A program made the translations under genes and the position numbers. Of a stretch of 64,000 nt of DNA, positions 29,981 through 63,504 are shown one piece after another. This DNA is from Betaproteobacteria bacterium (GTDB lineage Bacteria > Pseudomonadota > Gammaproteobacteria > Burkholderiales > Casimicrobiaceae), in contig JACPUX010000035.1 in NCBI GenBank assembly GCA_016192065.1, positions 1-64,000 on the forward strand. The letters are read 5' to 3'. How positions within the stretch are numbered: position 1 is the first letter of the stretch; the number at the start of each line of letters is the position of its first letter. Under the pieces are notes generated by a model. The model searched no databases. It was given only the letters and a program-made list of their open reading frames with translations, and was not told the DNA's origin.

Positions 29981-29983
29981 GCC

Positions 29984-44745: not shown

Positions 44746-44763
44746 GCGGTCCGCTCCGACTTT

Positions 44764-45747: not shown

Positions 45748-45760
45748 TATTCAGGCTTCC

Positions 45761-46783: not shown

Positions 46784-46813
46784 GGTCTTCGCGGGCTTAC
46801 TGTTCAAACAAAC

Positions 46814-46868
46814 GAGGCCCCGGCAAAACCGGGGCCTCAATGGAAGTTGTGCCGGCCTGCGCCGGCAC
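46814..46868 (-). terminator. Two hairpins after the Ig-like secreted-protein gene
   Basis: For minus-strand transcription, GTGCCGGC/GCCGGCAC (46849-46868) comes first, then GAGGCCCCGG/CCGGGGCCTC (46814-46838) with a five-base loop and a following GTTTGTTTG. The second is a good intrinsic terminator candidate for the gene ending at 46878. Confidence 0.7.
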
Positions 46869-46877
46869 TCGGGTGAC

Positions 46878-48035
46878 TTAGAGCTTCAACTCGATGATCG
46901 CGGAGCAGTCCTTGGTGCCGCAGCTATCGGCGTAGGTTCTGGTCGTCCGGTTGGTGATGGTGACGTAGTACACCGTGTTGGGCTGCAGCGTCTTGAATCC
47001 GGTGACGGGGGTGCCCACCGTGAAATTCACGGTCGCGGTGCTCCCTATAGCACCTTCGACGTAGTTCGACAAGGTGGCGCAGGGCTCTTCGTCCAGGAGC
47101 ATCAGTCGGGTGGTTGGGCTGGAGCCGATCTCCGCCACGGCGATACTGCCGACCCTGCCGGAAACCTCATTGGGGGTGCGGAAGGCGATCACCGCGGCGT
47201 GCTTGCCGGTGAAATTGCCCTGCTCGGCGGTCCACCACTTGACGTTGCCGGGGATCAGGTCATACACCTGGGCCTGGCCGGGGAAGACATAGGTGCTGGT
47301 AATGCCCGAGATATTGGTGCAACTGATGGCACCGGTTTGCGGCGCGTTCACTGTGATGGTCTGGTTCACGGTGTTCGAACAGGCGGAACCGTTGCATACC
47401 GTTGCCTGCATGGCGTAACTGCCGGGGTTGGCATAAGTGACGGTATGGCTGCTGTTGGAGCCGTTGGAGATATTGCCGCCGGTCGACTGCCAAGTGTAAG
47501 TGGCGCCGCTCAGGATTCCGCTGCAATTTACCGAGAAAGTCTGGCCCACTCCGGCGGTTGCGCTGGTCGGGCTGATGCTGTTGCATACCGGAGCGGCGAC
47601 CGTGACGGCGGTGAAGGTCATGGCGCGGGAATACCAGTCGCCCCAGGTGCTGCCCGCGTCTTTGGAAGCGCGAACGTAGAAGGTGTACGAACCGGCGGCA
47701 CGACCGGCGATGGAGCCAGAGATGTTGGTTCCGCTGGTGCCGATGAAGGCGGTGGTGGCGTCAGGTCCCGCGAATTCCCAACGGTCGATGGCCCCGCCAT
47801 TGGCCAAGCAGGTCGCCGTTAAGGAGAAGGCGGTGTCAGGAAGGGTGGTACTCGGGGTGAGGTTTGAACAGGTTGGCGGCCCGTTTTGTGTGGTCGCGAC
47901 GCAGGTAAGGGTACTGGTGTCTGGGTTCCAGGCCCAGGTTCCATCACAAGCCAGGGTGGCATTTGCGGCGTAGGCGCTGGCCGGAAAGCAGGCGGCGAGG
48001 GCAAGCAGGGCGAGGCCTCGGATTGAATTCATCAT
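46878..48035 (-). CDS. Secreted protein with Ig/PKD-like domains
   Basis: The 385-residue protein has a signal peptide (MMNSIRGLALLALAACFPASAYA, cleavage before ANA). The mature part is Ser/Thr/Asn-rich, with two or three Ig/PKD-like beta domains, for example SATCLANGG...WEFAGPDA near residue 75 and a PKD-like block, SGATYTWQSTGGNISNGS with YANPGSYAMQATV, near 180. A C-terminal domain ends in paired cysteines (DSCGTKDCSAIIELKL). AGGAG lies seven bases before the ATG. It lacks a lipobox or sorting signal and is probably released or surface-associated. The family was not identified. Confidence 0.75.
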   Translation of the reverse strand: MMNSIRGLALLALAACFPASAYAANATLACDGTWAWNPDTSTLTCVATTQNGPPTCSNLTPSTTLPDTAFSLTATCLANGGAIDRWEFAGPDATTAFIGTSGTNISGSIAGRAAGSYTFYVRASKDAGSTWGDWYSRAMTFTAVTVAAPVCNSISPTSATAGVGQTFSVNCSGILSGATYTWQSTGGNISNGSNSSHTVTYANPGSYAMQATVCNGSACSNTVNQTITVNAPQTGAISCTNISGITSTYVFPGQAQVYDLIPGNVKWWTAEQGNFTGKHAAVIAFRTPNEVSGRVGSIAVAEIGSSPTTRLMLLDEEPCATLSNYVEGAIGSTATVNFTVGTPVTGFKTLQPNTVYYVTITNRTTRTYADSCGTKDCSAIIELKL

Positions 48036-48425: not shown

Positions 48426-48446
48426 TGTTCAGCGTGGATGAGACGC

Positions 48447-49994
48447 TTAGTTGATACGGCGCGAACCCTTGTGAATGAAGTTGCCGCCGTAGTTCGACAG
48501 CACCGTTCCGGTGGCCGTCGGCAGATTGTTGTAGCCATACCGGTTGACCGAGAACCCGATGGTGGGCAGACCGTAGTAGGTCGACGCCGCCGCGGTCGTA
48601 ACAACACCGGCCGGGCTGGTGCGGGTGGTGGCACCGCCATACAGCACGTGGTAGGCCAAGCCAGCCAGGTGCGTGTACGTATAGCCAGCCGACGGGAAAC
48701 CGATGCGCAGCCAGCCATTGGGCGTGCCGCTGGGCACCGGAGCCGGCACATTCGACAAGTTCGTCGAACCAAGCACGTTGCTGTTGTTGAAGGTGATGAC
48801 GTTCGCTTCCCAGCAAATCTGCGGGGTGCTGGTGCGCTGCGGCGAGAACTGCAGCGAGGCGGTCGTGCTGCGTTCTTCGCGATCGAAGATCCGCAGATCG
48901 ACGTTGTCGCACGCGCCGTCGTAGTAGTTCCGCTGGAACAGACCCTGCACCTGACCAATAATGGAGCCGTCGGAGAACAAATACCACGGGCCATAATAGA
49001 AGGTCTTGGTCGGGAAGGTAACCACCCAGTCGGTACCCGCCGAGCTGTTGGCCGGATCGATCACGTACTCGTTCATGATGTAATCATGCATGAGCACGGC
49101 CGAAACCGGGTCAGCAGGCAGCGTGGTCAGCGCCGGCCAGGTCGTTTGCACCAGTTCCGAGGTCAGCGAGGAGCCATAGCTGGCGAACACGGTGCTGAGA
49201 CGCGGCGAGGACTGGGTCAGGTTCGGGAAGATCGAACCGGACACATACCACAGCGTGACGTCACTGAATGCATCCAGAGCGACCGGATCAGCGGTGTAAT
49301 CGGTGCCGTCAAAGACGTTGACGAGCGTTTCGCCGCCGAACAAACCGCCGGTGGGCGGAGCAACGTAAGCACCGAGCGTGCCGGCGCCGTCGAGGGCACC
49401 CAGAGCGGTACAGTTGAAGGCAACAGCGGTGGACAGGGGCACCGAGGCCGGGATGTTGGCACGCGCCCAGGAGGCGGCATGCGTCGCGTAGGCTGCGTAG
49501 GTCGCCTGGGTGATGTTGCCCATTTCGATGATTTCGAAATAGCCTTCACGGGTACGATCCAGCGAAGGATCGGAACCGTCAGCCGACCCGCCGGTGTAGG
49601 CGTAGTTCACGAACTCCTGACCACCAGCGGGGATCGGGGGCACCGTGCACGAAGTGTCTTCGGTCTTGATCATCGCGCCACCGGCGGTTTGAATGAGACC
49701 GGCGGTCCAAACGTCGTAGGGCGACAGGTACAAGTTAAAGTCCAAAACTTCGCGGGAGTTCTTGCCTTCCAGGAAGCGGACCTTGACGGCCTTGACGGAA
49801 CCGGTGCTGTTCACCACCGACAGCAGCGTGTTGTAGCTGTTGCCACCAACACTGCGAACCGTGTAGTAGGGGTAAAGCAGAACCTGGCCCAAGCCGTCCG
49901 GGTTGACGTTGACCGCTTGCGCGGCGCCCGTCACGCCCAGCGCGCTCAAACCTGCCAGAGCGGCGTACAGCGATTTTCTTTTGAACGTATTCAT
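48447..49994 (-). CDS. Secreted surface protein of unknown function, probably abundant
   Basis: A 515-residue exported protein. A signal peptide (MNTFKRKSLYAALAGLSALG, cleavage near AQA-VN) is followed by VNVNPDGLGQVLLYPYYTV, TLLSVVNSTGSVKAVKVRF and GKNSREVLDFNLYLSPYDVW. These blocks recur in an uncharacterised family of proteobacterial secreted proteins that I recognise only as such. Ser/Thr/Tyr/Gly-rich composition, a possible own promoter and a strong terminator suggest an independent, well-expressed unit. The ATG at 49994 is preferred over one at 50036 because it begins the signal peptide. A GAGGAG lies 12 bases upstream. No anchor is seen; it may be a substrate of the adjacent type II system. 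Confidence 0.78.
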   Translation of the reverse strand: MNTFKRKSLYAALAGLSALGVTGAAQAVNVNPDGLGQVLLYPYYTVRSVGGNSYNTLLSVVNSTGSVKAVKVRFLEGKNSREVLDFNLYLSPYDVWTAGLIQTAGGAMIKTEDTSCTVPPIPAGGQEFVNYAYTGGSADGSDPSLDRTREGYFEIIEMGNITQATYAAYATHAASWARANIPASVPLSTAVAFNCTALGALDGAGTLGAYVAPPTGGLFGGETLVNVFDGTDYTADPVALDAFSDVTLWYVSGSIFPNLTQSSPRLSTVFASYGSSLTSELVQTTWPALTTLPADPVSAVLMHDYIMNEYVIDPANSSAGTDWVVTFPTKTFYYGPWYLFSDGSIIGQVQGLFQRNYYDGACDNVDLRIFDREERSTTASLQFSPQRTSTPQICWEANVITFNNSNVLGSTNLSNVPAPVPSGTPNGWLRIGFPSAGYTYTHLAGLAYHVLYGGATTRTSPAGVVTTAAASTYYGLPTIGFSVNRYGYNNLPTATGTVLSNYGGNFIHKGSRRIN

Positions 49995-50024
49995 GGTTGT
50001 TAATGACTCCTCTATTTCAAGATT

Positions 50025-50085
50025 TAAAGTGATCACTTTAGAATCAACAGCAGGTTAATCTTATAACAGCTCATTGGGTTTTACA
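50025..50085 (-). promoter_or_regulatory. Promoter region with a 16-bp perfect palindrome
   Basis: TAAAGTGATCACTTTA at 50025-50040 is a perfect palindrome in the leader of the secreted-protein gene, 30 bases before its ATG. Upstream on the minus strand, TTTGTA (around 50080) and TATAAG (around 50060) are about 16 bp apart, a plausible promoter. The palindrome could be an operator for a dimeric repressor. Confidence 0.5.
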
Positions 50086-50131
50086 AATGGTTTCTGCTGC
50101 ACATACGGGCCCTCCTTCTTCAATACCTTGT

Positions 50132-50638: not shown

Positions 50639-50744
50639 GGTCGATTTCGCTTTGAGTTAGCCTATAGAAATCAGTTTGGATCGTCAAATCGTGCCCCGGC
50701 CTTTTCTGGGAACGAAAACCGCCTGTTGCAACAATACAACACCG

Positions 50745-52970
50745 TCATTTCACCTCACCTTGCGCCCCAATCGAGACCAGATCGGGGGCATCGGCGGTGA
50801 TTTTTGGGATTAGGTCGCCCAGATGCTCGAGCTTGCGCCGCAGCTCTTCGGTCACTTCGCGCAATTGCTGGTCGCTACTGATCAGCCGCGGCGTGATGAA
50901 CATGACCAGCTCGGTCCGTTTGCTGGTTCGCGTCTGACTGCCAAAGAGCGCGCCCAGCAAGGGGATCTCGGAGATCAGCGGCAAGCCGCTGCTGCCGTTG
51001 GATTTGTCTTCCCGAATGAGGCCGCCCATGATCATCGTCTCCCCCGACTGAACCGTCACCGTGGTGTTGGCGGAGCGCTTGGTGATCGTGGGCGAATCGA
51101 TATTCGAGGTATCGGTCTTGTTGGCCGAGCTCACCTCGGTGTTGAGCTCCAGCGCGATCAGGCCGCCAGCGTTGATGTGCGGCGTTACTTCAAGCAGGAT
51201 GCCGGTGTCGAGGTATTGCACCGAATTGATGATTCCCGTGGTTGTGCCGCTCACGGTCTGAGTTTGCGAGGTGGTTGGCACACGATCGCCAACCTGGATC
51301 TTTGCCTTCTGGTTGTCGGTGGCCATGATGTTCGGCCGCGAAATGATGTTCACGCGCGAATCCTTGGCCAACATGTTGAAAGTGCCGACGATACCGCCCG
51401 GCGCCAGCGCCCCCAGCGCTCCACCCGGCTTCCAGAGGTAGGAAAACCCCGGCACTGCGGTACCGAGGGTGGTCGAGGTGCCGGTCAGCAGGCTTCCCTG
51501 AAACGATTCGCCGTTCTTGAAGTAACCTTGCAGGCCAAGGCTCAGGTCATCCGTCAGAATGATTTCGGCGATGGTCACGTCGATCATTACCTGGCGCGGC
51601 GCGACATCGAGCTTTTTCAAGGCCGCCTCGATCAGCGAGTACTCGCCGGGGGTGGCCATGACCAAGAGGGCATTGTTGTCCTTATCGGCGATGATGGTGA
51701 CGTTCTTGGCCACGGCCAGCCCCTGCGCGGCGACTGGCGCTGGTGCCGGAGCCGTAGCCGCGCGCGCGGGTGCCGGCAAGGGACTGGAGCCCGCCGACTG
51801 ACTGGCGAGGGTCGCCGGGGTCTGACCCGGCGCCAAGGTCGGGGCACTTGGCCCGGGCGCCGGCGCCCGGCCGGTAAAAGCCTGGGTCAGCAGCGGTGCC
51901 AGTTTGTCGGCCCGGCCGTTCTGTACGTTGTACACGAACAACCTTGTTCCGCCGCTGTCCCCCCCTTTGTCCAGGCGGCCAATCCAGAGCTTGATCTGCT
52001 CGAGGTAATGGGGCTGGGGAGTCACTACCAGGAGTGCGTTAAGGCGCTCGATGGGGATGATGCGCAAAATGCCGGCCAGCGGGCCGAGGTTTTTGTCACC
52101 CATGATCTTTTCGAGCTCGGCGTTGACCGTCTTCACGTCGGCGCTCAAAAGCGTGAACAATCCAACCGACATTCCCGACATCCAATCGACGTCGAACATC
52201 TCGATCGTGGTGACCAGGTGTTGAAGTTCCCGCTCGGTGCCGAACAGAATGATCATGTTGCGCAGGTCGTCGGCGCGCAGGCTGGTGGCATCTTTGACGA
52301 AGGGATCGAGAATGCGCGCCATTTCACGCACGCCGACAAAGCGCAGGGGTACCAGCCGAACGCTGTAGCCTTGAGGTATGGGCCGGCCGGGGCCTCCGAG
52401 CTGAGGGGTGAGCGAGCCGCGGAAAGCGTTGGCGATCGGCACCACTTTGAAGACACCCGCCTCCTTTACCAGTGCCGCGCCGTTCATGCGTAGAACGGTC
52501 TCGAGCGTCGCCAGCAGCGCACTACGCGGTATCGGCTTGGTGCTGCGCAGGGTGACCGTTCCATTCACCGCGGGATCGAACAGATATCCCTCGTTGAGAA
52601 TGTCGGTGAGGATGTTCTTGACCACTTCGCGGACATCCGCCGCCTCAAAGTTGAGTGAAACATCGTCCCCGCCACCGGTCGAGGCCGGCGCCGCCGAGGT
52701 GTCTCGCGGTGGCGCCACCACGGTGGCGCCAGTACCTTTGTAGATTCTTGCTCGATCTTCCTCTCGCGGAATGCTGGACGCAGCGGCCAGACCTCGATGC
52801 GTCTCGGCGGATGGCGGCGGAAGGCGCATCGAACCAACTTGGCCGACCACCAAATTTGCATCCGGCGTTCCCTCCGAAAGCGGACCTCGCCCAGTTCCGC
52901 AGGCGGCGAGCAGCACCAATATGCCCAGCCCGAAGAAGGAGCGCTTTGCTCGAAGAATGTCTTGCATCAT
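50745..52970 (-). CDS. gspD: Type II secretion outer-membrane secretin GspD
   Basis: GspD forms the outer-membrane channel. From ATG 52970 (GAGG eight bases upstream) the 741-residue precursor has a lipobox (LVLLAAC), so it is a lipoprotein secretin that may need no separate pilotin. N-domains begin near residue 105 (VSLNFEAADVREVVKNIL). An Ala/Pro-rich insert separates the N3 halves (about 380-420). The secretin core includes VTIAEIILTDDLSLGLQGYF, VPTTSQTQTVSGT, TVQSGETMIMGGLIRE and IPLLGALFGS, ending in FITPRLI. The gene is last in the operon, 102 bases after gspC/N. Confidence 0.96.
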   Translation of the reverse strand: MMQDILRAKRSFFGLGILVLLAACGTGRGPLSEGTPDANLVVGQVGSMRLPPPSAETHRGLAAASSIPREEDRARIYKGTGATVVAPPRDTSAAPASTGGGDDVSLNFEAADVREVVKNILTDILNEGYLFDPAVNGTVTLRSTKPIPRSALLATLETVLRMNGAALVKEAGVFKVVPIANAFRGSLTPQLGGPGRPIPQGYSVRLVPLRFVGVREMARILDPFVKDATSLRADDLRNMIILFGTERELQHLVTTIEMFDVDWMSGMSVGLFTLLSADVKTVNAELEKIMGDKNLGPLAGILRIIPIERLNALLVVTPQPHYLEQIKLWIGRLDKGGDSGGTRLFVYNVQNGRADKLAPLLTQAFTGRAPAPGPSAPTLAPGQTPATLASQSAGSSPLPAPARAATAPAPAPVAAQGLAVAKNVTIIADKDNNALLVMATPGEYSLIEAALKKLDVAPRQVMIDVTIAEIILTDDLSLGLQGYFKNGESFQGSLLTGTSTTLGTAVPGFSYLWKPGGALGALAPGGIVGTFNMLAKDSRVNIISRPNIMATDNQKAKIQVGDRVPTTSQTQTVSGTTTGIINSVQYLDTGILLEVTPHINAGGLIALELNTEVSSANKTDTSNIDSPTITKRSANTTVTVQSGETMIMGGLIREDKSNGSSGLPLISEIPLLGALFGSQTRTSKRTELVMFITPRLISSDQQLREVTEELRRKLEHLGDLIPKITADAPDLVSIGAQGEVK

Positions 52971-53072
52971 GATCTGTACCTCATTTTCGCTTTGCACTGC
53001 CTGGTTCCGCCGCGTTTAGAGCATTTCCCTTGAATCTGAATTCCAACGTCGCTCGGATGCAAACAGGCAACC

Positions 53073-53855
53073 TTACCTTCCTTGACGCATGCGTTCGAAG
53101 GTGGCGTCCCACCCCGATCCTGTTCTGGTCGAAGGGCCATCGGCTCGCCCCGCGCTCGCCGGAACGTCGGACCCGGCCGGAGCGCCACTTTTTTCAGTAA
53201 CCTCTTTGCCGTCGGCACGAACCACTCGACGAGACCCTGGCTTTGGCGCCGGCTGTTCGCCTGCCCCAGACGCCGGTCGCGCGGGCGCCGCGACTTGCGG
53301 CACCGCTGGTGGCATGGACGACCTCGGCGCGGTTTGAGGCGCGTTGGAACCCTGTCGCCGTGGTGACACCGCGGTCTTAAGCGCAAGAATTTCGGTTTCG
53401 TCGTCCAGCCGCAAGATGACTTGGCCGGCCTCGATCTTGTCCACGACCGAGCCGTTGAGAATGTCCCCCTGGGCAACCCGCCTCTGCTTGGTGCCATTCG
53501 CATCGCGCAGAAGCGCGAAGCTTTTGGACCCTGCGATGGTGGTACCCATCAACACGAATTCGCCGCGCGCCATGCGTCGCTTAACCTCGGGGGCTGCCGC
53601 CGCTGGGGATGGTCGCCTTGTGGGGGTCAGCAGCGGGCGCTCAACCGTCTCCGAAAAAGCCGAGGTCGGAACGGCCTGGATATCCTTGAGCAACGCCAGC
53701 GGAACTGCTTCCGGTGCGGGAAGGGTATGAACCATCGCCGGCCGCTGCAGGTTTCGGCCCCAATCGAGCTCCCAGCCGATGATGAGCAGCAGGAGCATGG
53801 CGGCACCCGCGTAAACAAGCAGCAAATTCTTTAGCCGCGGGTCGGCAGCAGTCAA
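53073..53855 (-). CDS. Type II secretion inner-membrane protein GspC/XpsN-like
   Basis: The 260-residue bitopic protein has a membrane segment at residues 11-27. A conserved periplasmic HR-like domain follows, roughly 85-165: RGEFVLMGTTIAGSKSFALL and RVAQGDILNGSVVDKIEAGQVIL. The C-terminal tail is long and Ala/Pro/Ser-rich. In Xanthomonas-type systems the equivalent gene lies between gspM and gspD and is called xpsN. It links the inner-membrane platform to the secretin. It overlaps gspM by four bases. Confidence 0.85.
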   Translation of the reverse strand: MTAADPRLKNLLLVYAGAAMLLLLIIGWELDWGRNLQRPAMVHTLPAPEAVPLALLKDIQAVPTSAFSETVERPLLTPTRRPSPAAAAPEVKRRMARGEFVLMGTTIAGSKSFALLRDANGTKQRRVAQGDILNGSVVDKIEAGQVILRLDDETEILALKTAVSPRRQGSNAPQTAPRSSMPPAVPQVAAPARPASGAGEQPAPKPGSRRVVRADGKEVTEKSGAPAGSDVPASAGRADGPSTRTGSGWDATFERMRQGR

Positions 53856-54433
53856 TTCGCGCTCCCTGCCAGATAGGCACTTACATCAAGCTGCACGTTG
53901 ATCTCGGGCTCCACCCCCGGAGTCGGCCGAAACCCCCTGAACACGCCGGTCCGCAACGTCATGTTGTCAACAAACACGAAAGGCGTTTGCGCTTCGAGAG
54001 CGTTAAGGATGCGCTGCAGGGATTGCACGTTGGCAACCATTTGGACCGAAACTGGGATCAAGCGGTGGGTGCCATCCTCGCGCGCCTGACCGATTTGAAT
54101 GCTCCCGAGGCGTCCTCCGTTTCCTTCCACCGCCGCCCGTACCATTTCCTGGACTTCGGCGCCGGCCAGGTTCACCGCTGACGCCTTCAGGTAGAAGCGC
54201 CTTCCGTTCTTGGCCTTGATCGCTTCCAGCGCGCGTGCGTATTCGGGGTGCTGCGCCGCCATTTTCTGAAAGCGCTGCAATCGAATTTGATAGTCCGACA
54301 ACACGGCGTCGTAGCGCCGGTGCAAGAGGTACGGGGGAACGGCGAGCAGAGCAATCGCCAACAGCATCGCCCCGACAAGTACGCCGAGGGCAAGCGCGCG
54401 ACCCTGCCGCGGATTCAGGACCAGCCGCTTCAT
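53852..54433 (-). CDS. gspM: Type II secretion inner-membrane protein GspM
   Basis: The 193-residue protein has a short cytoplasmic start, one membrane segment (about 13-35), a coiled-coil-like stretch (LSDYQIRLQRFQKMAAQHPEY) and a periplasmic ferredoxin-like domain (LIPVSVQMVANVQSLQRILNAL). This is the GspM subtype found with GspL/PilN-like partners. It overlaps gspL and gspC/N by four bases each. GspM and GspL form the assembly platform that couples GspE to the pseudopilus. Confidence 0.88.
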   Translation of the reverse strand: MKRLVLNPRQGRALALGVLVGAMLLAIALLAVPPYLLHRRYDAVLSDYQIRLQRFQKMAAQHPEYARALEAIKAKNGRRFYLKASAVNLAGAEVQEMVRAAVEGNGGRLGSIQIGQAREDGTHRLIPVSVQMVANVQSLQRILNALEAQTPFVFVDNMTLRTGVFRGFRPTPGVEPEINVQLDVSAYLAGSAN

Positions 54434-55869
54434 GGGTTCGGCCTGGGGGGTGGTGGAACGGCATGACCTGAATTTTCAGGTGCCGGATTGGCACTCCCCC
54501 CGCCCGGCACGCTGCTGGCCTGATGTCGCGGGTTGGCTTTCGGGTTCGCTCCCGAAGTCGGCGAACGCTCGACTTTTGGCGCTTCCTGAGTTGACGCGGA
54601 ATCTCGTTCCTGTCCGCCTGGCGCGACCACAGGTCCGGGCGCAACGGGTGCGGGCCCGGGGCTCGGGGCAGGCCCGCCCTCCGCCCTCAGGGGGGGCGGA
54701 ATTGAAGTCGATGCTGCCGCGGCCGCCGGCTCCGGTACAGGGCGTTGTTTGACTTCCGCACCGACGTGATACACGTCACCGGCTCCGGGTTGGCCCTTTG
54801 TCACCGGCGACTTGTAGGTCGCCTGGGTAAACAATCGCGACTCCTCGAACACGGAAATCAGTTTGCCGGAAACCCCCGTTTCTCCGCGCACTTGAAGTTC
54901 GCGATTCTTCGTCGGGTTCTTGCTGTCTGATCGGAGCTCGACCAGATGCGCCCAAGTGTCGTCGGGGAGAATGCGCGAGACCTCGTCCAGAACTTCCAGG
55001 GCAGTGGGGTGCGTGTGCTTCTTCTCGAGCAGAAAATTGTACTCACTTTGCTGCGCGATGAGCTGCCGGTGCAAGGCTTCGGCAGCTTCCGCGCGCGCGC
55101 GGAAATCGTTGACCTCGGGCTCCAGCGCGCGCACCTCCACGCTCTTGATCCAGATTGGCAGAAGCAGCGCACCAAGAGCAAGGCTTACCACCACCGCGGG
55201 TGCCAGCAAGAAAATTCCCGACCGAGCCTCGGTGGACCCAACGCGCCGGTCCTCTGGCAAGAGGTCGAGCACCGGGACCCCGCCCTCGGGCAAATCCGAA
55301 AGCATGCCCGCCACGGAGAATCCGAGCTTGCCGAGATGTTCAGCGATTCGATCGACTGGAGCGCGCGGCGCGGCCCCCAACTCGATGGCCAGCAGCTGGC
55401 GCGCCTCGTCATGCCCCAGAACGCGAACGTCAAAATATGCTTGATCTGGCCTGAAAGGCGTATATCGGTCCAGTTCGAAGCCAATTGCACCGCGCAGATT
55501 CTCGGAAATTGCCTGCGGTACCTGGATACGCCGGCGCAGAACGTCGCGCTCCGGAAGAACGACCAGGACGTTTCTACCCCTCGCCGCAATAGCGTCGCGA
55601 ACCGCTTGCGGCAGCTGCACTTCGTTGCTGAGGTCAGCTTCCCAGCGAGCAAGCTCCACCCACCGGCCCTCGGCAGCACCGTACAACACCTGCTCGCCGC
55701 CGTCGCTCTTCAATGCCAGTTGGGCCCGTGCCGGACTCAACATGGCGCGCAGGCGCAGTGGCATCATCGCCCCCAGCTCACCGCTCCACCAGCGCCAGAA
55801 AGGGGCAACGCCGCTTCCTTCCAGAAACGCACGCGCCCGCCTGGCCGTGTTGTCGCTCACCCAAGCCAA
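54430..55869 (-). CDS. gspL: Type II secretion assembly-platform protein GspL
   Basis: The 479-residue protein has an N-terminal actin-like cytoplasmic domain (residues about 40-230, with VVLPERDVLRRRIQVPQAI and GFELDRYTPFRPDQAYFD). A membrane segment follows near 235-255 (APAVVVSLALGALLLPIW), then a periplasmic domain with EVLDEVSRILPDDTW and QATYKSPVTKG. A low-complexity Ala/Pro tail of about 100 residues is longer than usual. The actin-like and periplasmic parts resemble fused PilM/PilN-type modules. It couples the cytoplasmic ATPase to the pseudopilus. Confidence 0.9.
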   Translation of the reverse strand: MAWVSDNTARRARAFLEGSGVAPFWRWWSGELGAMMPLRLRAMLSPARAQLALKSDGGEQVLYGAAEGRWVELARWEADLSNEVQLPQAVRDAIAARGRNVLVVLPERDVLRRRIQVPQAISENLRGAIGFELDRYTPFRPDQAYFDVRVLGHDEARQLLAIELGAAPRAPVDRIAEHLGKLGFSVAGMLSDLPEGGVPVLDLLPEDRRVGSTEARSGIFLLAPAVVVSLALGALLLPIWIKSVEVRALEPEVNDFRARAEAAEALHRQLIAQQSEYNFLLEKKHTHPTALEVLDEVSRILPDDTWAHLVELRSDSKNPTKNRELQVRGETGVSGKLISVFEESRLFTQATYKSPVTKGQPGAGDVYHVGAEVKQRPVPEPAAAAASTSIPPPLRAEGGPAPSPGPAPVAPGPVVAPGGQERDSASTQEAPKVERSPTSGANPKANPRHQASSVPGGGSANPAPENSGHAVPPPPRPNP

Positions 55870-55872
55870 ATT

Positions 55873-56829
55873 TCAGTTCCCAGACTTTGTCGCCATGGCG
55901 GAGCCTTCCCGCCAGATCATGAAAATCGGTGGCTGACGCAAATTGCCCGTCAGCCGCACCACCGCCTCGCGCACAAACAACACGCCGTCACCCGTACGCG
56001 CTTCGGCGCGCACCTGAAAAGCTGCACTTTCCCCGGCCGCAAAAGCCGCCGCCGCGGGAAAGGGTGGCACCGGCGCGCCGCTGGCCAAAGCCTCCTGGCG
56101 CTGCGCCACATAGATCGCCACCTGTTCGGGAGTTGCTCCAGGCAGTGCCAGCAGCAACTCCGGTGCCGCATAGAGCGCGTGAATTCCGCTCTGGCGCGAC
56201 TGGACCGTGAGGTACGGCGCCAGACGCGCATAGAGCGCCGGCGTCACACCCAGCACGCGCTGCAAATCCGCAATGCTCTCGAAAGGGGCGTTCGCCGGCT
56301 TGTAGGTTCGCCCGGCCGCCCGGTAGTCCGACTCCTCCGCACCATTGGGCCGCCGCAAATCGTCCGCATCGCGCCAATCGACGATGGCATCCAGCAAGCG
56401 GGCCGCCTCGTCGGCACCGAGCCCGCCCAGCCTTTGGAGTACGCTGAGCATCAGGGGTTCGGCCGCCGTATTGAGGTCGATTTTACCAGACTCATCGGTA
56501 ATCCTCACCCGCAGTGTGCTTCCCGCACTCTGCCAGACATACTCCTGGCCATTACGTTTCCAGGCTTCCGCAGTGTTCTGCGGCCGGCTGGCCTCATAGA
56601 TGGCCCGGAACACCGCTCCGTCCGCGGCCGCCCGGGCTTGCGCCATGGCTACCGCATTGCGTGCCACCAAGGCCTCGGTGCGCATGCTGTACGCAAGACT
56701 CCCGGCGATCAACGTGAGCAGCGCCATCACCCACAGCACCAGGATCAGGGCGATGCCTTGCTCATATCGGGGCGGGCGCGACCTCGCCATCCCCGGGACT
56801 CCGGATTGTCCGCGCTTGTCGTTCATCAT
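55873..56829 (-). CDS. gspK: Minor pseudopilin GspK
   Basis: The 318-residue protein has a prepilin leader ending ...PPRYEQG, then IALILVLWVMALLTLIAGS; absence of Glu at position 5 is normal for GspK. The large globular domain contains the helix-rich LNTAAEPLMLSVLQRLG, LLDAIVDWRDADDLRRPNGAEESDY calcium-binding-type region and FESIADLQRVLGV. GspK caps the pseudopilus tip. I start at the ATG at 56829, which with the following ATG overlaps the gspJ stop (ATGATGA). Confidence 0.92.
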   Translation of the reverse strand: MMNDKRGQSGVPGMARSRPPRYEQGIALILVLWVMALLTLIAGSLAYSMRTEALVARNAVAMAQARAAADGAVFRAIYEASRPQNTAEAWKRNGQEYVWQSAGSTLRVRITDESGKIDLNTAAEPLMLSVLQRLGGLGADEAARLLDAIVDWRDADDLRRPNGAEESDYRAAGRTYKPANAPFESIADLQRVLGVTPALYARLAPYLTVQSRQSGIHALYAAPELLLALPGATPEQVAIYVAQRQEALASGAPVPPFPAAAAFAAGESAAFQVRAEARTGDGVLFVREAVVRLTGNLRQPPIFMIWREGSAMATKSGN

Positions 56830-57488
56830 CGGCAGCGCTGGTGGAAACTGTCCCAGCGGCAACCCGCCTCACCACCGACCATGGGCGCGGTCAGCAGTTC
56901 TGGCCAGGGCTCGCCGTTCGCGGGCTTGACCTTGAGCTCGATCAACATGGGCAATCGATCCGGGTCTTCCCAGGTGTCCCGCCAGGTCGGTTCCTGGCCG
57001 GTGGCCAGCTTACCCTCGCGGCCGAAGTATCGAAACTTCAGCTCCGCGATGTTTTCGGCGAGCACGGTCTTTTCAGCTTCGCCAAAGTCCGGGAAGGCCA
57101 GCAAGGAGCTGTCCGGAACGAGGCGCCGCAACACCAGGCGCGGGTGCTCGGTGCCGGCTTCCAGGCCGAGCTGAAACCATGAGACGCCACCCTGCCCCGC
57201 GCGCGCCACCAAGGGTGCGACAAAACGCACTCGCTCATTTTCGCCAACAAAGGCCAGGGGCGAACCCTGCGCCTTCTTCCAGCGCCAGGGATGGAGTTGG
57301 CTGAACTGGCTGCGCAGCAAGGTCTCGGTGATGCGCATTTGTCCGACTCGGTCAATGCGGGCCTCGCCGGCGTCCCAGCTCTTGGTGGCGAGCCCCAGCG
57401 AGCCAGCCACCAGGGCCATCAGCAGGCCCAGCAGGGCGAAGGCCAACATCAGTTCGAGCAGCGTAAACCCCCTGGCGCGCGGTGCCAT
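56826..57488 (-). CDS. gspJ: Minor pseudopilin GspJ
   Basis: The 220-residue protein has a leader MAPRARG followed by FTLLELMLAFALLGLL, with Glu5 intact. The globular domain (FSQLHPWRWKKAQG, WFQLGLEAGTEHPRLVLRRL, ELKFRYFGRE) is typical of GspJ. It ends with a Cys pair (GCRWDSFHQRC). With GspI and GspK it forms the pseudopilus tip complex. Confidence 0.93.
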   Translation of the reverse strand: MAPRARGFTLLELMLAFALLGLLMALVAGSLGLATKSWDAGEARIDRVGQMRITETLLRSQFSQLHPWRWKKAQGSPLAFVGENERVRFVAPLVARAGQGGVSWFQLGLEAGTEHPRLVLRRLVPDSSLLAFPDFGEAEKTVLAENIAELKFRYFGREGKLATGQEPTWRDTWEDPDRLPMLIELKVKPANGEPWPELLTAPMVGGEAGCRWDSFHQRCR

Positions 57489-57491
57489 GAG

Positions 57492-58380: not shown

Positions 58381-58805
58381 CTGTGAATGTCCTTATTCTC
58401 GCCCTCGCCGCCTTCTCTTCCATCAGCGCCGTAGGAGACGATATCGTAGGCGCCGTGCTGCCCGGGCGAGGTGTATTTGTAGTCGTTGTTCCAGGGATCC
58501 TTGGGCAGCACGTCCTTCCTGAGGTAGGGGCCGGTCCAGTTGCTCACCCCGGAGGGCGCCTGAACCAGGGCAGCCAGGCCTTCGGAAGTCGTGGGGTAGC
58601 GTCCGACGCTGATCTTGAACAGGTCGAGGGTCTGCCCAAACCCCTCGATCTGAATCTTTGCCGACTTCGATTTCGCCTCGCCGAAGTAATTCATCACCTT
58701 CGGCCCGGCGATACTGGCGATCAGCCCCAGGATCACCAGCACCACCAGGAGTTCAATCAAGGTCATGCCCACTTGGCGGTTGATCCGCCGGTCAAGTCTT
58801 GCCAT
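58371..58805 (-). CDS. gspG: Major pseudopilin GspG
   Basis: The 144-residue major pseudopilin polymerises into the secretion piston. The leader MARLDRRINRQVG precedes MTLIELLVVLVILGLIAS (Glu5 present). The domain has IEGFGQTLDLFKISVGRYPTTSEGL, then LPKDPWNNDYKYTSPGQHG and a calcium-site-like YDIVSYGADGREGGEGENKDI, highly typical of GspG. A strong AAAGGAGGAG lies seven bases upstream of ATG 58805. This site sits within the 3' end of the GT41 gene, whose stop overlaps the gspG start by 14 bases. Confidence 0.97.
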   Translation of the reverse strand: MARLDRRINRQVGMTLIELLVVLVILGLIASIAGPKVMNYFGEAKSKSAKIQIEGFGQTLDLFKISVGRYPTTSEGLAALVQAPSGVSNWTGPYLRKDVLPKDPWNNDYKYTSPGQHGAYDIVSYGADGREGGEGENKDIHSWD

Positions 58806-60516
58806 CGGTGTACTCCTCCTTTGAATCTGCTTCGGCACAGCGCTGTTGCCAGATCTGGCGCAGCGCCGCCGCGAAATCTCGGGCAAAACGCGCGGTGTCG
58901 CACAACGCGGAACGCGCCATGTTGGCCCGCAAATCTGCGCGCATTCTCGCCAGCCTTGCGCGGTCTCCGGCCAGGGCCACGGCGATCTCAAGGTATTGCT
59001 CCGGCGTATCGGCGACCAACTCGGACAAGCCCACACAGTCCAGCATGGCCGCGCTTTGCCGGGCGATCATGCGCTCAGCGCGCAGGGCGATCACCGGAAC
59101 GCCCATCCAAAGCGCGTCGCAGGTGGTGGCACCACCGTTGTATGGCGTGGTGTCGAGGGCGATGTCGAGCGCCCCATACTCGCCGAGCAACTCGGCGTGG
59201 CTCGACGCACCTCGCCATTCGACGCGCTCCGAAGAGACCCCCAGAGCGGCGAATCGTTCCGTGAAGTGACGCCGCACTTCCGTCATGGCGAAGGCCTCGC
59301 CCTTCAGCAGCAGGCGCGCGTCGGGCACACGCTCGAGAATTCGCGCCCAAAGACCGAGCAATTCCGGGTTGAGCTTGTCGGCACGGTTGAAGCTGCCGAA
59401 GGTGATGTAGCCCCGGTTGGTGGAGGGCGCCGGCGCCACCTCCGGGGCGAAATCCGGCGGGGTCCAGCACAGGCGCGTCTCGGGTAGGCGCAGTAGCTGT
59501 TCCGAAAAACGCTGCGGGGAGTCGATCGGCGTGGTCCGGGCATCGGTGATCAAATAGTCGATGATCGCCAGCCCGGTGGTGTCGAAATAGTCGAGCCAGC
59601 TCACTTGTATCGGGGCGGGCTGGCGCGCGAACAGGAGCAGCCGATTGCCCGGCGCATGCCCGGCGAGGTCGATCAGGATGTCGACCCCGTCGGCGGCCAC
59701 CAGTTGGGCGGCGGCGGCATCTTCGAGCCCGGTGATATCGTGCCAGCGATCGACGCTGGCGCGAATGGCGGCGGTGATGTCGTCGGTTTCGCGGGTCGCC
59801 GAATAGGCGATGAGGCGCAGGCCTTGAAGGTGCAACTGCGGCAGCAAGCCGCGCAGAAACTGGCCCACGATCTTGCCATTGAAGCTCGGAGAGACCAGTC
59901 CAATGGTGAGCGCACGCCGCGGATCCGGATTAGTGGGCACCGGCGGCCGCGGCGGATAATGGCGCGCGGCATGCCGCTCAGCCCAGCGTTGATGGAGGGA
60001 GAAAATCTGTTCGTGGCTGAACCCGGCACTGTAATGTACACAGATCAGGTGGTGGCTCTGGCGTATGGGATCGTCCGGCCCGAGGGCGATGGCCCGTTCG
60101 TAACACTGGGTAGCTTGGTCGATTTCGCCAAAGGCCTTGAGGATGTTGCCGAGATTGTTCCAGGCGGGTCCGAGCCGTGGGTCCAGCGTCAGCGCCTGCC
60201 GCAGCAACTGCGCCGCTTCGCCGAACCGGTTGGCCAGCACCAGCGCCATGGCGGCGTTGTACTGTGCCAGCGCGTTCGCGGGATTGGCCCGCGCCGCGGG
60301 CAGCAGCAGGGACAGCGCGGCGGCGGCGTTGCCGGCCTGGAGCGCCACCACGCCCAAGAGGTAACGCGCCTCAGGATCGCCGGGCCGCTCGCGCAAGACC
60401 ACCTGCAGGGTGCGTTCGGCTTCGGCCAGCCGGCCTTCGCCCAGGAGCACCACCGCTTGCGCGCGCAGCGCCAACGCGGTCGCTGGCGCCAGGGATGGCA
60501 GGGACGCCGCCGGCAT
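58792..60516 (-). CDS. TPR - GT41 (SPINDLY/OGT-like) glycosyltransferase inside the type II operon
   Basis: A 574-residue protein with about four TPRs (16-152) and a GT41-type domain from about 205. Segments are GLVSPSFNGKIVGQF (Lys near 214 where the catalytic-base His is expected), WLDYFDTTGLAIIDYLITD, FGSFNRADKLNPELLGLWARIL (donor Lys near 382), and DIALDTTPYNGGATTCDALWMGVPVI with RQSAAML. It starts one base after gspF and overlaps gspG, so it is co-transcribed and translationally coupled with the secretion genes. Candidate substrates are secretion components or exported proteins; this is inference. No close copy of this arrangement is familiar to me. Confidence 0.86.
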   Translation of the reverse strand: MPAASLPSLAPATALALRAQAVVLLGEGRLAEAERTLQVVLRERPGDPEARYLLGVVALQAGNAAAALSLLLPAARANPANALAQYNAAMALVLANRFGEAAQLLRQALTLDPRLGPAWNNLGNILKAFGEIDQATQCYERAIALGPDDPIRQSHHLICVHYSAGFSHEQIFSLHQRWAERHAARHYPPRPPVPTNPDPRRALTIGLVSPSFNGKIVGQFLRGLLPQLHLQGLRLIAYSATRETDDITAAIRASVDRWHDITGLEDAAAAQLVAADGVDILIDLAGHAPGNRLLLFARQPAPIQVSWLDYFDTTGLAIIDYLITDARTTPIDSPQRFSEQLLRLPETRLCWTPPDFAPEVAPAPSTNRGYITFGSFNRADKLNPELLGLWARILERVPDARLLLKGEAFAMTEVRRHFTERFAALGVSSERVEWRGASSHAELLGEYGALDIALDTTPYNGGATTCDALWMGVPVIALRAERMIARQSAAMLDCVGLSELVADTPEQYLEIAVALAGDRARLARMRADLRANMARSALCDTARFARDFAAALRQIWQQRCAEADSKEEYTDGKT

Positions 60517-60517
60517 C

Positions 60518-61750
60518 TCAGATGGCCAGGTCGTTGACCGACAGCAGCGCCACCAGGATGGACATGATGATCAGTCCGACCATGGCCGCGAGCCCCAGGA
60601 TCAAAGCGGGTTCCAAGAGCGCCAGCAAGCGCTTCACGGCAATTTGCACTTCGCGGTCGTAGACCTCGGCCACCCGCAGCAGCATCTCTTCGAGCCGCCC
60701 GGTCTCCTCGCCGACCAGAATCATGTGAATGGCCAGCGGCGGATAGAGCCCGCTTTCAAGCAGCGGCTGCCCCAAACCCCGGCCCTCGCGCAGCTTGACG
60801 ATGACGCCGTCGAGCGCCTGGGCAAGCACGGTGTTGCTCAGGGTCTCCCTGACGATCAGCATCCCATTGAGCAGCGAAACGCCATTGCCCAGCAGGGTGC
60901 CCAGGGTCCGCGCAAACCGGGTGGTCTCGACCTTGGCGACCAGATCTCCAACCAGGGGCAGGCGCAGGAACCGCCCATCCCACTTGGCCCGTGTCGCCGG
61001 CTTGGACATTTGCTCCCGCCACCACAAACGCAGCACGAACGCCGCCAGAAGGAGGGTCCACCAGTAGCTGCGCAGATAGTCGCCCGCGGCAATAACGATT
61101 TGCGTGGCCAGCGGCAAGGCCTTGCCCGCCTCTTGAAACATCTGCTGGAATTGCGGCACCACGAAGATCAAGAGGGCGATCAGCGCGGCGACGGAAACCA
61201 CCACCAGGATCACCGGGTAGATCAGAGCCGACTTGACCGTATCGCCCAGTTCGCGCGCACGCTCCAGGAATTCGGCCAGGCGCCCGAGGACCAGCGGCAA
61301 AGCGCCGCCGGCCTCACCGGCGCGCACGATGTTGATGTAGAAGCGCGAAAAATATCCCTTCTGCGCTTCCAGCGCTTGGGACAGCGAGGAGCCGCCGCGC
61401 AGATCGTCGCGGATTTGTTGTTGCAAGTCGCGCAAGGGTCCTTCCGGCGCAAGGTTGATCAGCACTTGCAGAGCGCGGTCCAACGGCAGCCCGGCCTTGA
61501 GCAGCGTCGCCAATTCGCGGGTGAAGCCCAGGAGGTCGTCGGAGGAAATGCTCCGCCGAGCAAACAGCGACCGTTTAGAGGTGCCTATGCCCGAAGCAGC
61601 GCCACTGCCCGGCTGCGCCTGTTCGACCCGAATGGGCATCAGGCCGAGGTCTCGCAGGCGGTCGACCACGGCGGACTCCTGTGGTGCCTCGAAGTCGCCG
61701 ACAGTGACTGCGCCAGCGGAATCAACGGCCTTGTAGCGATAGAGCGGCAT
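60518..61750 (-). CDS. gspF: Type II secretion inner-membrane platform protein GspF
   Basis: A 410-residue platform protein with the two homologous PilC/GspF domains: LLGFTRELATLLKAGLPLDRAL near residue 75 and KVETTRFARTLGTLLGNGV near 275. Three hydrophobic segments lie at about 175, 225 and 385. The N-terminus YRYKAVDSAGAVTVGD is typical. I use ATG 61750; a TTG nine bases earlier is possible. The frame is closely followed by the GT41 gene. GspF anchors the pseudopilus machinery and contacts the ATPase. Confidence 0.94.
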   Translation of the reverse strand: MPLYRYKAVDSAGAVTVGDFEAPQESAVVDRLRDLGLMPIRVEQAQPGSGAASGIGTSKRSLFARRSISSDDLLGFTRELATLLKAGLPLDRALQVLINLAPEGPLRDLQQQIRDDLRGGSSLSQALEAQKGYFSRFYINIVRAGEAGGALPLVLGRLAEFLERARELGDTVKSALIYPVILVVVSVAALIALLIFVVPQFQQMFQEAGKALPLATQIVIAAGDYLRSYWWTLLLAAFVLRLWWREQMSKPATRAKWDGRFLRLPLVGDLVAKVETTRFARTLGTLLGNGVSLLNGMLIVRETLSNTVLAQALDGVIVKLREGRGLGQPLLESGLYPPLAIHMILVGEETGRLEEMLLRVAEVYDREVQIAVKRLLALLEPALILGLAAMVGLIIMSILVALLSVNDLAI

Positions 61751-61755
61751 CAGGC

Positions 61756-63504
61756 TCAACCCTCCCGGGTGACGCGCAATACTTCCTCGAAGGTGGTGAC
61801 CCCACGCACCGCTTTGCGCAGGCCGTTTTCATACATGGTCAGCATGCCTTCCTTGACCGCCTCGGCGCGCAGTTCGCTCGCGGTGGCGTGACGCATCACC
61901 AGGCTGCGGATCGGATCGGTCATGCAGAGCATTTCCATGATTGAGACCCGGCCGATGTATCCGGTTCCGGCGCATTGCTCGCACCCGCCGGGGTGGTAGA
62001 GCACGATTTCCTTGGTCGAACTGAATCGATGCAGGCCCATCTGCTCGACCAGTTCGGGCACCGCCACATACGGCTTGCGGCAGGCGGTGCAAAGCGTGCG
62101 CACCAGGCGCTGTGCCAAGATGCCGTTGACCGTGGAGGTGAGCAGGTAGTCTTCGACCCCCATGTCCAGAAGGCGGTTCACGGTGCTGGGGGCGTCATTG
62201 GTATGCACCGTGGACAGCACCATGTGGCCGGTGAGCGCTGACTGCACGGCGATCTGGGCGGTTTCGAGATCGCGGATTTCGCCGATCATGATCACATCCG
62301 GATCCTGGCGCACGATCGACCGCAAGGCATTGGCGAAGGACAGGTTGATCTGGGGCTTGACCTGAATCTGGTTGATGCCGGCCATCTGGTACTCGACCGG
62401 GTCTTCGACGGTGAGAATTTTGAGTTCAGGTTTGTTGAGACGGTCCAGCGCCGTGTAGAGCGTAGTGGTCTTGCCCGAGCCGGTCGGACCGGTGACCAGC
62501 AGAATGCCGTGGGGCTGGTCCAGTACGCCAAGGAAAATCTCGAGCACGTCGTCGTCGAAACCCAGGCGCTCGAAGTCCAAGGCAACACCACCCTTGTCGA
62601 GAATCCGCATGACCACCGACTCGCCGTGCATGGTAGGCACGGTGGACACGCGCAGATCGATCTCCTTGCCCTGGGTGCGCAGACGGATCCGGCCATCCTG
62701 GGGCAAGCGGCGTTCGGCAATATCGAGGTTGGCCATGATTTTCACCCGCGAGATCACGGCGGCGGAAAGGCGTCGTGGCGGCGATTCGGCCTCATGCAGA
62801 ACGCCATCGACGCGGTAGCGAACGATCAGCCGATTCTCGAAAGGCTCGATGTGAACGTCAGAAGCGCGCGTTTCCAGAGCGTGGGTGATGATCAGGCTGA
62901 CCAGCCGGATCACCGGGGCCTCCGAGGCGAGATCTTTCAACTGCTGAATGTCGGCATCGAGTCCACCCTCATCGACGCGCGTTTCCACCGCATCGCCGAG
63001 AATCTGGCCCATGGCCGACTTGCCGCTGCCGTAAAGCCGCTCCAGGGCGGCCTCGATCTCATTGGGCAGGCCGATGACCGGCCGGACCTCGCGCTGGGTG
63101 ACCAGGCGGAACGCATCGATGGCATAACGGTCCAGCGGGTCGGCCATGGCCAGCACAACCTCGTCTTCGTCCTCGCGCACCGGAAGCACCCGGGCGTCTT
63201 TCAAGAAGCGGTGTGAAACGCGCTCCTCCAGAACGGGCAACTCCGGAAAGGCCTTGGCGTCCAGCAAAGGCAAGTCGAGTTGCTGGGCCAGCGCCTCCAT
63301 GACATCGCGCTCGGAGACCAGCCCCAGGGTGATCAGCAATTGACCCAGACGCTGGCGCTCCGACCCCTCTTGCAGGCGCAGGGCGCGTTCGAGTCCGGCA
63401 GCGTCGAGCTTGCCCCGCTCTTGCAGAATCTCTCCGAGAAGCTTCGCCAAGGCCTGGTTCCGTCCAAAAAAGAGCGGCGATTCTAACACAGCCGCATATT
63501 GCAA
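61756..63504 (-). CDS. gspE: Type II secretion ATPase GspE
   Basis: GspE is the hexameric ATPase that drives pseudopilus growth. The 582-residue frame has an N1E/MshEN-like N-domain (LLGEILQERGKLDAAGLERAL). It carries GPTGSGKTTTL (Walker A, near 340), the Asp box IGEIRDLETAQI, the His box and a zinc-binding tetracysteine (CTACRKP ... CEQCAG). The start is uncertain: the longest frame opens with TTG at 63504, but a TTG at 63450 gives MAKLLGEILQERG, closer to other GspE N-termini. A TAGAAT on the minus strand (63480-63485) might be a promoter -10 and would favour the shorter form. It is the first gene of the operon. Confidence 0.95.
   Translation of the reverse strand: MQYAAVLESPLFFGRNQALAKLLGEILQERGKLDAAGLERALRLQEGSERQRLGQLLITLGLVSERDVMEALAQQLDLPLLDAKAFPELPVLEERVSHRFLKDARVLPVREDEDEVVLAMADPLDRYAIDAFRLVTQREVRPVIGLPNEIEAALERLYGSGKSAMGQILGDAVETRVDEGGLDADIQQLKDLASEAPVIRLVSLIITHALETRASDVHIEPFENRLIVRYRVDGVLHEAESPPRRLSAAVISRVKIMANLDIAERRLPQDGRIRLRTQGKEIDLRVSTVPTMHGESVVMRILDKGGVALDFERLGFDDDVLEIFLGVLDQPHGILLVTGPTGSGKTTTLYTALDRLNKPELKILTVEDPVEYQMAGINQIQVKPQINLSFANALRSIVRQDPDVIMIGEIRDLETAQIAVQSALTGHMVLSTVHTNDAPSTVNRLLDMGVEDYLLTSTVNGILAQRLVRTLCTACRKPYVAVPELVEQMGLHRFSSTKEIVLYHPGGCEQCAGTGYIGRVSIMEMLCMTDPIRSLVMRHATASELRAEAVKEGMLTMYENGLRKAVRGVTTFEEVLRVTREG

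What the first reader, a model, noticed from the sequence alone, without database searches (positions are those of the whole stretch)
58792..60516. OGT/SPINDLY-type glycosyltransferase built into a type II secretion operon
A TPR-GT41 gene sits between gspF and gspG. It starts one base after gspF and overlaps gspG by 14 bases, covering the gspG ribosome-binding site. This tight coupling makes a chance insertion unlikely. GT41 enzymes usually glycosylate Ser/Thr of cytosolic proteins. Pseudopilins, GspE, GspL or secreted cargo before export are plausible substrates. A secretion system with its own glycosyltransferase would be notable.
Basis: partly seen in the sequence, partly recalled or inferred. 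Interest (0 to 1): 0.8.

Follow-up and report, generated by a model that had tools for sequence, protein, structure and literature searches.

The report
Glycosyltransferase gene inside a secretion operon
An unnamed bacterium carries a sugar-attaching enzyme gene inside the operon for its type II protein-secretion machine, and some relatives keep enzymes of the same unusual kind next to that machine and its probable surface cargo, which suggests that secretion and sugar decoration are linked there, though no substrate is known.

Summary
Window 58792-60516(-) is an intact TPR-GT41 gene, one base after gspF and overlapping gspG by 14 nt. The one other genome of the genus has it in the same slot (71% identity, dN/dS about 0.17). 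The gspG overlap is not kept there (163-nt gap), and 55 of 55 other T2SS loci fetched from the family have no gene between gspF and gspG, so the slot is genus-specific.

The wider result is new. The protein belongs to a GT41 clade (18 rows, SH-aLRT 95). None of the 18 has the His of SPINDLY H495 / human OGT H558, which 63 of 69 other GT41 rows have; the donor lysine is kept throughout. In 8 of the 16 clade members outside this genus the gene lies within 12 kb of gspD or of SurfA, an unannotated secreted protein next to gspD; 4 of these 8 also have a Wzm/Wzt-type exporter there. The window holds that module too, but its clade GT41 sits in the operon.

Best reading: a T2SS-dedicated GT41 variant acting on T2SS cargo, probably SurfA, before export. 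Substrate, donor and activity are inferred. The altered active site weakens the OGT-like Ser/Thr reading. Pseudopilin modification remains a rival.

The parts
58792..60516 (-). TPR-GT41 glycosyltransferase gene (574 aa), between gspF and gspG
   Evidence: same slot in G001
59872..59874 (-). codon of K215, aligned with SPINDLY H495 / human OGT H558 (the His absent from this clade)
   Evidence: alignment, residue equivalence, column counts
59374..59376 (-). codon of K381, aligned with SPINDLY K665 / human OGT K842 (kept in 84 of 84 rows)
59140..59142 (-). codon of Y459, aligned with SPINDLY Y744
60518..61759 (-). gspF
   Evidence: T2SSF; TIGR02120 412.6 bits, just under its cut-off of 424
61756..63504 (-). 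gspE
   Evidence: TIGR02533 673.9 bits
58371..58805 (-). gspG, major pseudopilin
   Evidence: TIGR01710
57919..58380 (-). gspH
   Evidence: below NCBIfam cut-offs; Pfam GspH 28.2 bits
57492..57926 (-). gspI
   Evidence: below NCBIfam cut-offs
56826..57488 (-). gspJ
   Evidence: below cut-offs
55873..56862 (-). gspK
   Evidence: Pfam T2SSK_1st
54430..55869 (-). gspL-like
   Evidence: weak PilM match; position
53852..54433 (-). gspM (T2SSM_b)
53073..53855 (-). gspN-like, by position only
   Evidence: no Pfam match; homologue in the same place in most loci
50745..52997 (-). gspD secretin
   Evidence: TIGR02517 464.8 bits
50132..50638 (-). short protein with a lipobox by eye ('Lipo'), conserved after gspD
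   Evidence: (no Pfam match)
48447..50036 (-). SurfA: 529-aa protein with an N-terminal signal-like stretch (by eye), candidate cargo
   Evidence: no Pfam or NCBIfam match; conserved after gspD
46878..48035 (-). second secreted-looking protein, PKD domain, 25% Ser+Thr
45761..46840 (-). PpiC-type peptidylprolyl isomerase
44764..45549 (-). Wzm-type ABC-2 permease
43549..44745 (-). Wzt-type ATPase
41760..43539 (-). two related unannotated genes (42622-43539 and 41760-42683)
   Evidence: no Pfam match; for the first (one sub-cut-off acyltransferase hit)
38035..41648 (-). methyltransferase (40302-41648) and GT2/GT4 glycosyltransferase (38035-40305)
32356..37994 (-). two further TPR-GT41 genes (34587-37994, 32356-34590), low-scoring against the clade profile
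   Evidence: clade-profile score of 34632-35756 225 bits

Best explanation
The gene encodes a cytoplasmic TPR-GT41 glycosyltransferase of a distinct clade that is dedicated to this type II secretion locus. In related genera it lies in an accessory cluster just downstream of gspD (lipoprotein, SurfA, and in some genomes a PPIase and a Wzm/Wzt exporter); in this genus it has moved into the operon between gspF and gspG, where it is read with the secretion genes. I think it modifies the T2SS cargo, most likely SurfA, in the cytoplasm before Sec export, much as the GT41 enzyme HMW1C does for its adhesin (recalled), so that a decorated surface protein is delivered by the T2SS. Shown here: gene, slot, conservation in both genomes of the genus, purifying selection, clade, linkage, changed active-site residues. 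Inferred: co-transcription, activity, donor sugar, cargo as acceptor, order of events.
For: Same slot in both genomes of the genus, dN/dS about 0.17. Clade of 18 GT41 rows (SH-aLRT 95; 15 rows 97; 94 with the active-site columns removed). 8 of the 16 clade members outside the genus lie within 12 kb of the SurfA-type gspD or SurfA: G074, G057, G018, G023, G212, G307, G418 (gspD on the same contig) and G027 (SurfA on the same contig); they span two families and four genera. Selected by SurfA and not by GT41, 20 genomes (of 22 found in 399) gave a clade GT41 in 10, and 9 of these 10 are linked (7 of 8 outside the genus). Three of the nine (G212, G307, G418) were found this way and then proved to have the clade's residues and place in the tree, while the best GT41s of G365, G008 and G442, not at the T2SS locus, did not. 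K381 and Y459 of the donor side are kept.
Against: No substrate, donor or activity was tested. 8 of 16 clade members outside the genus are not shown to be linked (G003, G005, G009 and G080 on contigs of 38 kb or more; G013, G016, G021, G028 on contigs under 16 kb). Most SurfA-type T2SS loci of the family have no clade GT41 nearby that I saw, so cargo secretion does not need it. GT41s of other clades are also common near the T2SS in this family (for example G000, G001, G002, G003, G009, G074), so the linkage is not exclusive to this clade. The lost His is essential in SPINDLY, so the enzyme could be inactive. SurfA as T2SS cargo rests on position and a signal-like N-terminus only.
Confidence: 0.38

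Rival explanations
1. It glycosylates a type IV filament subunit: the major pseudopilin GspG (or another pseudopilin) before assembly.
For: Position directly before gspG in both genomes. Passages of PMC9260433 state that a Synechococcus TPR protein with an O-GlcNAc-transferase domain glycosylates PilA. GT41 genes of other clades lie within 5 kb of a prepilin motif in 9 of 59 loci held around the better-scoring GT41s, against 0 of 20 around more distant GT41s (counted by eye from its list).
Against: None of the nine pilin-linked loci belongs to the window's clade, and those shown have the His that this clade lacks. The clade's usual place is downstream of gspD, not beside gspG. GspG has only 11% Ser+Thr, and 55 other family T2SS loci work without a GT41 in this slot.
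Confidence: 0.17
2. It takes part in building the glycan exported by the nearby Wzm/Wzt transporter, which could tether SurfA, and the protein acceptor idea is wrong.
For: Wzt lies in the same cluster in G074, G057, G212, G307, in G016's short contig, and in the window and G001. The acceptor-side His of protein-modifying GT41s is gone. In Aeromonas salmonicida a T2SS plus S-layer gene lies between wzm and wzt (PMC4483657, passages).
Against: In 4 of the 8 linked genomes outside the genus (G018, G023, G027, G418) the best Wzt match is on another contig or far away, and in G003 Wzt and SurfA are together while the clade GT41 is elsewhere. The GT41s with known activity that I know of act on proteins (recalled).
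Confidence: 0.2
3. Neutral hitchhiker: a GT41 of this GT41-rich region landed in the operon without harming it and has no role in secretion.
For: Only one genus has it; the genome has seven GT41 matches and several GT41s lie near the T2SS in relatives. G001 also has a GT2 gene between gspE and gspF, so the operon tolerates insertions.
Against: Kept intact in both genomes with dN/dS about 0.17; the clade is linked to T2SS/SurfA in other genera.
Confidence: 0.15
4. Catalytically dead relative that serves as a TPR scaffold or chaperone for secretion.
For: The SPINDLY H495A and H495F mutants are dead (passage of PMC9715652) and the aligned position is never His in the clade; SPINDLY T748 is also replaced.
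Against: Donor lysine kept in 84 of 84 rows, Y/F kept at 459 in the clade, and purifying selection.
Confidence: 0.1

Closest known systems
SPINDLY / O-GlcNAc transferase (CAZy GT41)
   Same: TPRs plus GT41 domain; best solved-structure match SPINDLY 7y4i, E 9.8e-109 over residues 87-561; human OGT 1.3e-75; Thermobaculum OGT 2.6e-93. Donor lysine K665/K842 and Y744 kept.
   Different: No intervening domain; H495/H558 replaced by Lys, D491 by Ser, T748/T921 by Ala; encoded in a secretion operon.
HMW1C / N-glycosyltransferase with its two-partner secretion system
   Same: Works-like comparison: a cytoplasmic GT41 enzyme encoded with a secretion system and its cargo (recalled).
   Different: Not a member: NCBIfam NF049992 33.7 bits against a cut-off of 1000; a T2SS, not a two-partner system.
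Aeromonas salmonicida A-layer locus (sps T2SS genes + vapA between wzm and wzt)
   Same: A T2SS, a surface-protein gene and a Wzm/Wzt exporter with glycosyltransferases in one locus (PMC4483657, passages).
   Different: The passages name no GT41; SurfA showed no Pfam or NCBIfam match and was not compared with VapA; whether SurfA forms a layer is unknown.
Synechococcus elongatus Synpcc7942_0051, a TPR protein with an O-GlcNAc-transferase domain reported to glycosylate PilA
   Same: TPR-GT41-type enzyme acting on a type IV filament subunit (statement in PMC9260433; the primary paper is not held).
   Different: Not compared by sequence here; concerns type IV pili, not T2SS.

Membership tests
GT41 (PF13844) | Matches the family model over its cut-off | tested here: met
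   168.9 bits against 25
GT41 (PF13844) | Donor-phosphate lysine (SPINDLY K665, hOGT K842) | tested here: met
   K381; 84 of 84 rows
OGT/SPINDLY-type Ser/Thr O-glycosyltransferase | Acceptor-side His (SPINDLY H495, hOGT H558) | tested here: not met
   K215; His in 0 of 18 clade rows, in 63 of 69 other rows and 15 of 15 class-level hits
OGT/SPINDLY-type Ser/Thr O-glycosyltransferase | Thr at SPINDLY T748 / hOGT T921 | tested here: not met
   A463; Thr in 0 of 18 clade rows, 50 of 69 other rows; only 8 of 15 class-level hits have it, so this one is not diagnostic
OGT/SPINDLY-type Ser/Thr O-glycosyltransferase | Transfers a sugar to Ser/Thr of proteins | not testable with these tools
   needs biochemistry
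NGT/HMW1C | NCBIfam NF049992 over cut-off | tested here: not met
   33.7 of 1000 bits
T2SS operon gene | Kept inside the operon across the lineage | tested here: inconclusive
   both genomes of the genus; absent from 55 of 55 other T2SS loci fetched from the family
T2SS-linked surface-protein locus (Aeromonas A-layer type) | T2SS genes, surface-protein gene and Wzm/Wzt in one locus | tested here: met
   window 43549-63504, taking SurfA as the surface protein
T2SS-linked surface-protein locus (Aeromonas A-layer type) | The surface protein is exported by this T2SS and forms a layer | not testable with these tools

The most novel reading that the evidence does not exclude
A previously undescribed GT41 subfamily, with the OGT/SPINDLY acceptor His lost and the donor site kept, is dedicated to a type II secretion system and puts a sugar on its cargo or pseudopilins by a different acceptor chemistry; in one genus the enzyme has been built into the T2SS operon itself. 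It would be a glycosylating T2SS.
Probability: 0.3. Interest if true: 0.78.

Novelty: new variant of a known kind. Interest (0 to 1): 0.58.

Why it matters
T2SSs are studied as sorting and export machines; a dedicated cytoplasmic glycosyltransferase would add a modification step encoded with the machine. The clade is also a natural experiment on GT41 catalysis: the donor site is kept while the His that is essential in SPINDLY is gone, which makes the question of acceptor chemistry directly testable. And it points to an unannotated protein family (SurfA) conserved beside gspD as a probable main cargo.

Tried and rejected
Rejected: artefactual frame or pseudogene (intact in both genomes). Rejected as too strong: conserved translational coupling to gspG (163-nt gap in G001). 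Rejected: score alone as test of clade membership; with the clade profile A4, a non-clade GT41 of G045 scores 469.8 bits, above clade members G018, G212 and G307, so membership was taken from tree and residues. Rejected as diagnostic: loss of T748, because 7 of 15 class-level hits with the His also lack it.

Led nowhere: the search for related loci in genome contigs chose patterns in the TPR region and returned four TPR relatives, so the named-genome distribution stays unknown; paper searches for a T2SS-GT41 link showed none in their listings, except that led to a paper (PMC1569441) whose passages concern PEP-CTERM sorting. Absence from print is claimed only for those searches of the held open-access library.

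Rows chosen or dropped: the 84-row tree took the 75 best of 109 GT41 rows and every fourth of the rest; rows covering under about 230 query residues were left out. Two prepilin-motif hits (L173, L176) were discounted by eye. Of 22 SurfA genomes, 20 were carried on (G230 and G262 were not). The family T2SS count uses 55 loci from the 62 family genomes outside the genus; one genome (G014) gives two loci.

Full report
Observation. The ORF at 58792-60516(-) is intact, carries TPRs and a GT41 domain (168.9 bits, cut-off 25) and is closest among solved structures to SPINDLY (7y4i, E 9.8e-109), then Thermobaculum OGT and human OGT. It starts one base after the gspF stop and overlaps gspG by 14 nt, with the gspG ribosome-binding site inside its frame. 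The neighbours are a T2SS operon, E-F-GT41-G-H-I-J-K-L-M-N, followed by gspD. No promoter-like site was seen between F and G; co-transcription is inferred.

Conservation of the slot. The one other genome held for the genus, G001, has gspF-GT41-gspG with 71% identical GT41. F and GT41 are 2 nt apart there, but GT41 and gspG are 163 nt apart, so the gspG overlap is not constrained. G001 has a second inserted glycosyltransferase gene, a GT2 (PF13712, 27.0 bits, exactly at its cut-off), between gspE and gspF. Between the two genomes GT41 shows dN 0.22 and dS 1.33 (ratio about 0.17; dS is high and rough), like gspJ and gspK and less conserved than gspE-G. In the family 61 of 64 genomes have a gspG-like match. 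I fetched 55 T2SS loci from the 62 family genomes outside the genus: in 55 of 55 the distance between the gspF and gspG matches is at most 325 nt, median 108 over all 56 loci including G001. The next-best GT41s in the family are 43-47% identical and not at gspF-gspG. Searches of 399 genomes of the order and 369 of the class, in which only three candidates per genome were scored, found nothing above 43% at E <= 1e-105 outside the genus.

A GT41 clade with an altered active site. In a tree of 84 GT41 rows the window protein and G001 group with G005, G016 and G021 (98) inside a 15-row clade (97). Passages of the SPINDLY structure paper (PMC9715652) say that K665 is essential, that H495A and H495F are dead, and that H495 and D491 correspond to human OGT H558 and D554. 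By the alignment the window has K381 at K665 and Y459 at Y744, but K215 at H495, S211 at D491 and A463 at T748. Across the alignment His is present in 0 of 15 clade rows and 63 of 69 others; Asp in 1 of 15 and 63 of 69; Thr in 0 of 15 and 50 of 69; Lys in 84 of 84. With these columns removed the clade still stands on one side of a branch (94). In 15 class-level hits from outside the order that score high with the clade profile, 15 of 15 keep Asp and His, though only 8 of 15 keep the Thr. So the lost His marks the clade, and the lost Thr does not.

Linkage to the T2SS locus. In G074 the clade GT41 follows gspD - lipoprotein - SurfA - PpiC - Wzm - Wzt. G057, of another family, has the same order, with an additional secreted-looking gene before PpiC. 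The window has the same module downstream of gspD (43549-50638) without a clade GT41 in it. SurfA has no Pfam or NCBIfam match; 18 of the 56 family T2SS loci held show it just after gspD, many of the others ending before that point. I then searched 399 genomes of the order for SurfA (22 found) and took 20 of the 22 through searches for clade GT41, gspD and Wzt. Ten of the 20 have a clade GT41 (by tree and residues), and in nine of these it is at the T2SS/SurfA locus: in the operon in G000 and G001, 6.6 to 10.9 kb from gspD in G018, G023, G057, G212, G307 and G418, and 11.7 kb from SurfA in G027, where a contig break hides gspD. G003 is the exception. G212, G307 and G418 were not in the first tree; they carry the clade residues and fall in the clade (18 rows, 95), whereas the best GT41s of G365, G008 and G442, which are not at the locus, have Asp, His and Thr (or the like) and fall outside it where shown. 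Over all 18 clade rows, 10 are linked, 8 of 16 outside the genus; the unlinked are G003, G005, G009 and G080 on contigs of 38 kb or more, and G013, G016, G021 and G028 on contigs under 16 kb (G016's holds PpiC-Wzm-Wzt-GT41). A clade GT41 placed at random would fall this near one locus in well under 1% of 4-Mb genomes (estimate), but shared descent means that these are not independent cases.

Results against a simple story. Wzt is part of the cluster in only 4 of the 8 linked genomes outside the genus, so the link is to T2SS/SurfA more than to the exporter. Of the five linked genomes outside the genus whose DNA between gspD/SurfA and the GT41 was held, four show a PpiC-like match (G074, G057, G018, G027) and one (G023) does not. 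GT41s of other clades also crowd the T2SS region in this family, and a different, distant GT41 lies some 5 kb upstream of gspE in several genomes, so part of the linkage may reflect a GT41-rich region. Most family T2SS loci do without a GT41 in the operon.

Mechanism. I favour modification of T2SS cargo, SurfA first, in the cytoplasm before Sec export. It fits the linkage to SurfA and gspD, and the precedent of GT41 enzymes encoded with a secretion system (HMW1C, recalled). The Aeromonas salmonicida locus, with T2SS genes and the S-layer gene vapA between wzm and wzt (PMC4483657, passages), shows that such loci can export a surface protein that is tethered by an exported glycan. Pseudopilin modification has a precedent in kind: a cyanobacterial TPR/OGT-domain protein is reported to glycosylate PilA (PMC9260433, passage), and GT41s of other clades sit within 5 kb of pilin motifs in 9 of 59 loci against 0 of 20 around more distant GT41s. 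None of those nine is in this clade. Because the essential His is gone, a changed acceptor, a glycan acceptor, or loss of activity are all open.

Verdict. The arrangement is real and maintained but genus-specific; the GT41 clade behind it, with its lost His and its tie to a T2SS locus, is the more interesting and more testable result. In the listings of my paper searches I saw no report of a GT41 tied to a T2SS.

Noticed in passing
L031:14397-15074 (G001): A GT2 gene (PF13712) between gspE and gspF of the sister genome; 47-56% homologues exist in six other family genomes (G060, G079, G004, G068, G002, G003), in G004 beside a GT41.
   Followed up: partly
L196:6540-9590 (G000:C75) and L185:6778-9729 (G001:C45): Single ORFs holding GT41 and, at the C-terminal side, a GT2 domain related to the G001 inter-gspE/F GT2; a natural fusion of the two enzyme types (PF13712 confirmed in L196).
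   Followed up: partly
L036, L042, L046, L168, L169, L179, L183, L187, L188: GT41 genes of other clades within 5 kb of type IV prepilin motifs, in L036 inside a pilB-pilC-pilin locus; candidate cytoplasmic pilin glycosylation.
   Followed up: partly
window 48447-50036; 22 of 399 genomes of the order: SurfA, an unannotated family of secreted-looking proteins, mostly beside the gspD of one of two T2SSs, with paralogues elsewhere (for example G000:C27:45556-47103).
   Followed up: partly
G000:C14:37533-39320: The genome has a second GspD, which scores higher on TIGR02517 (637.9 bits) than the window's (465.6 bits).
   Followed up: no
window 27698-37994: A run of four TPR proteins, three with GT41 domains and two with a SEC-C zinc motif, beside a WcaJ-type sugar transferase (23525-24961).
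   Followed up: no
L033:3312-5279 (G016): The sister-clade GT41 of G016 has an N-terminal SEC-C-like Cys motif (by eye) and lies convergent to PpiC-Wzm-Wzt.
   Followed up: no
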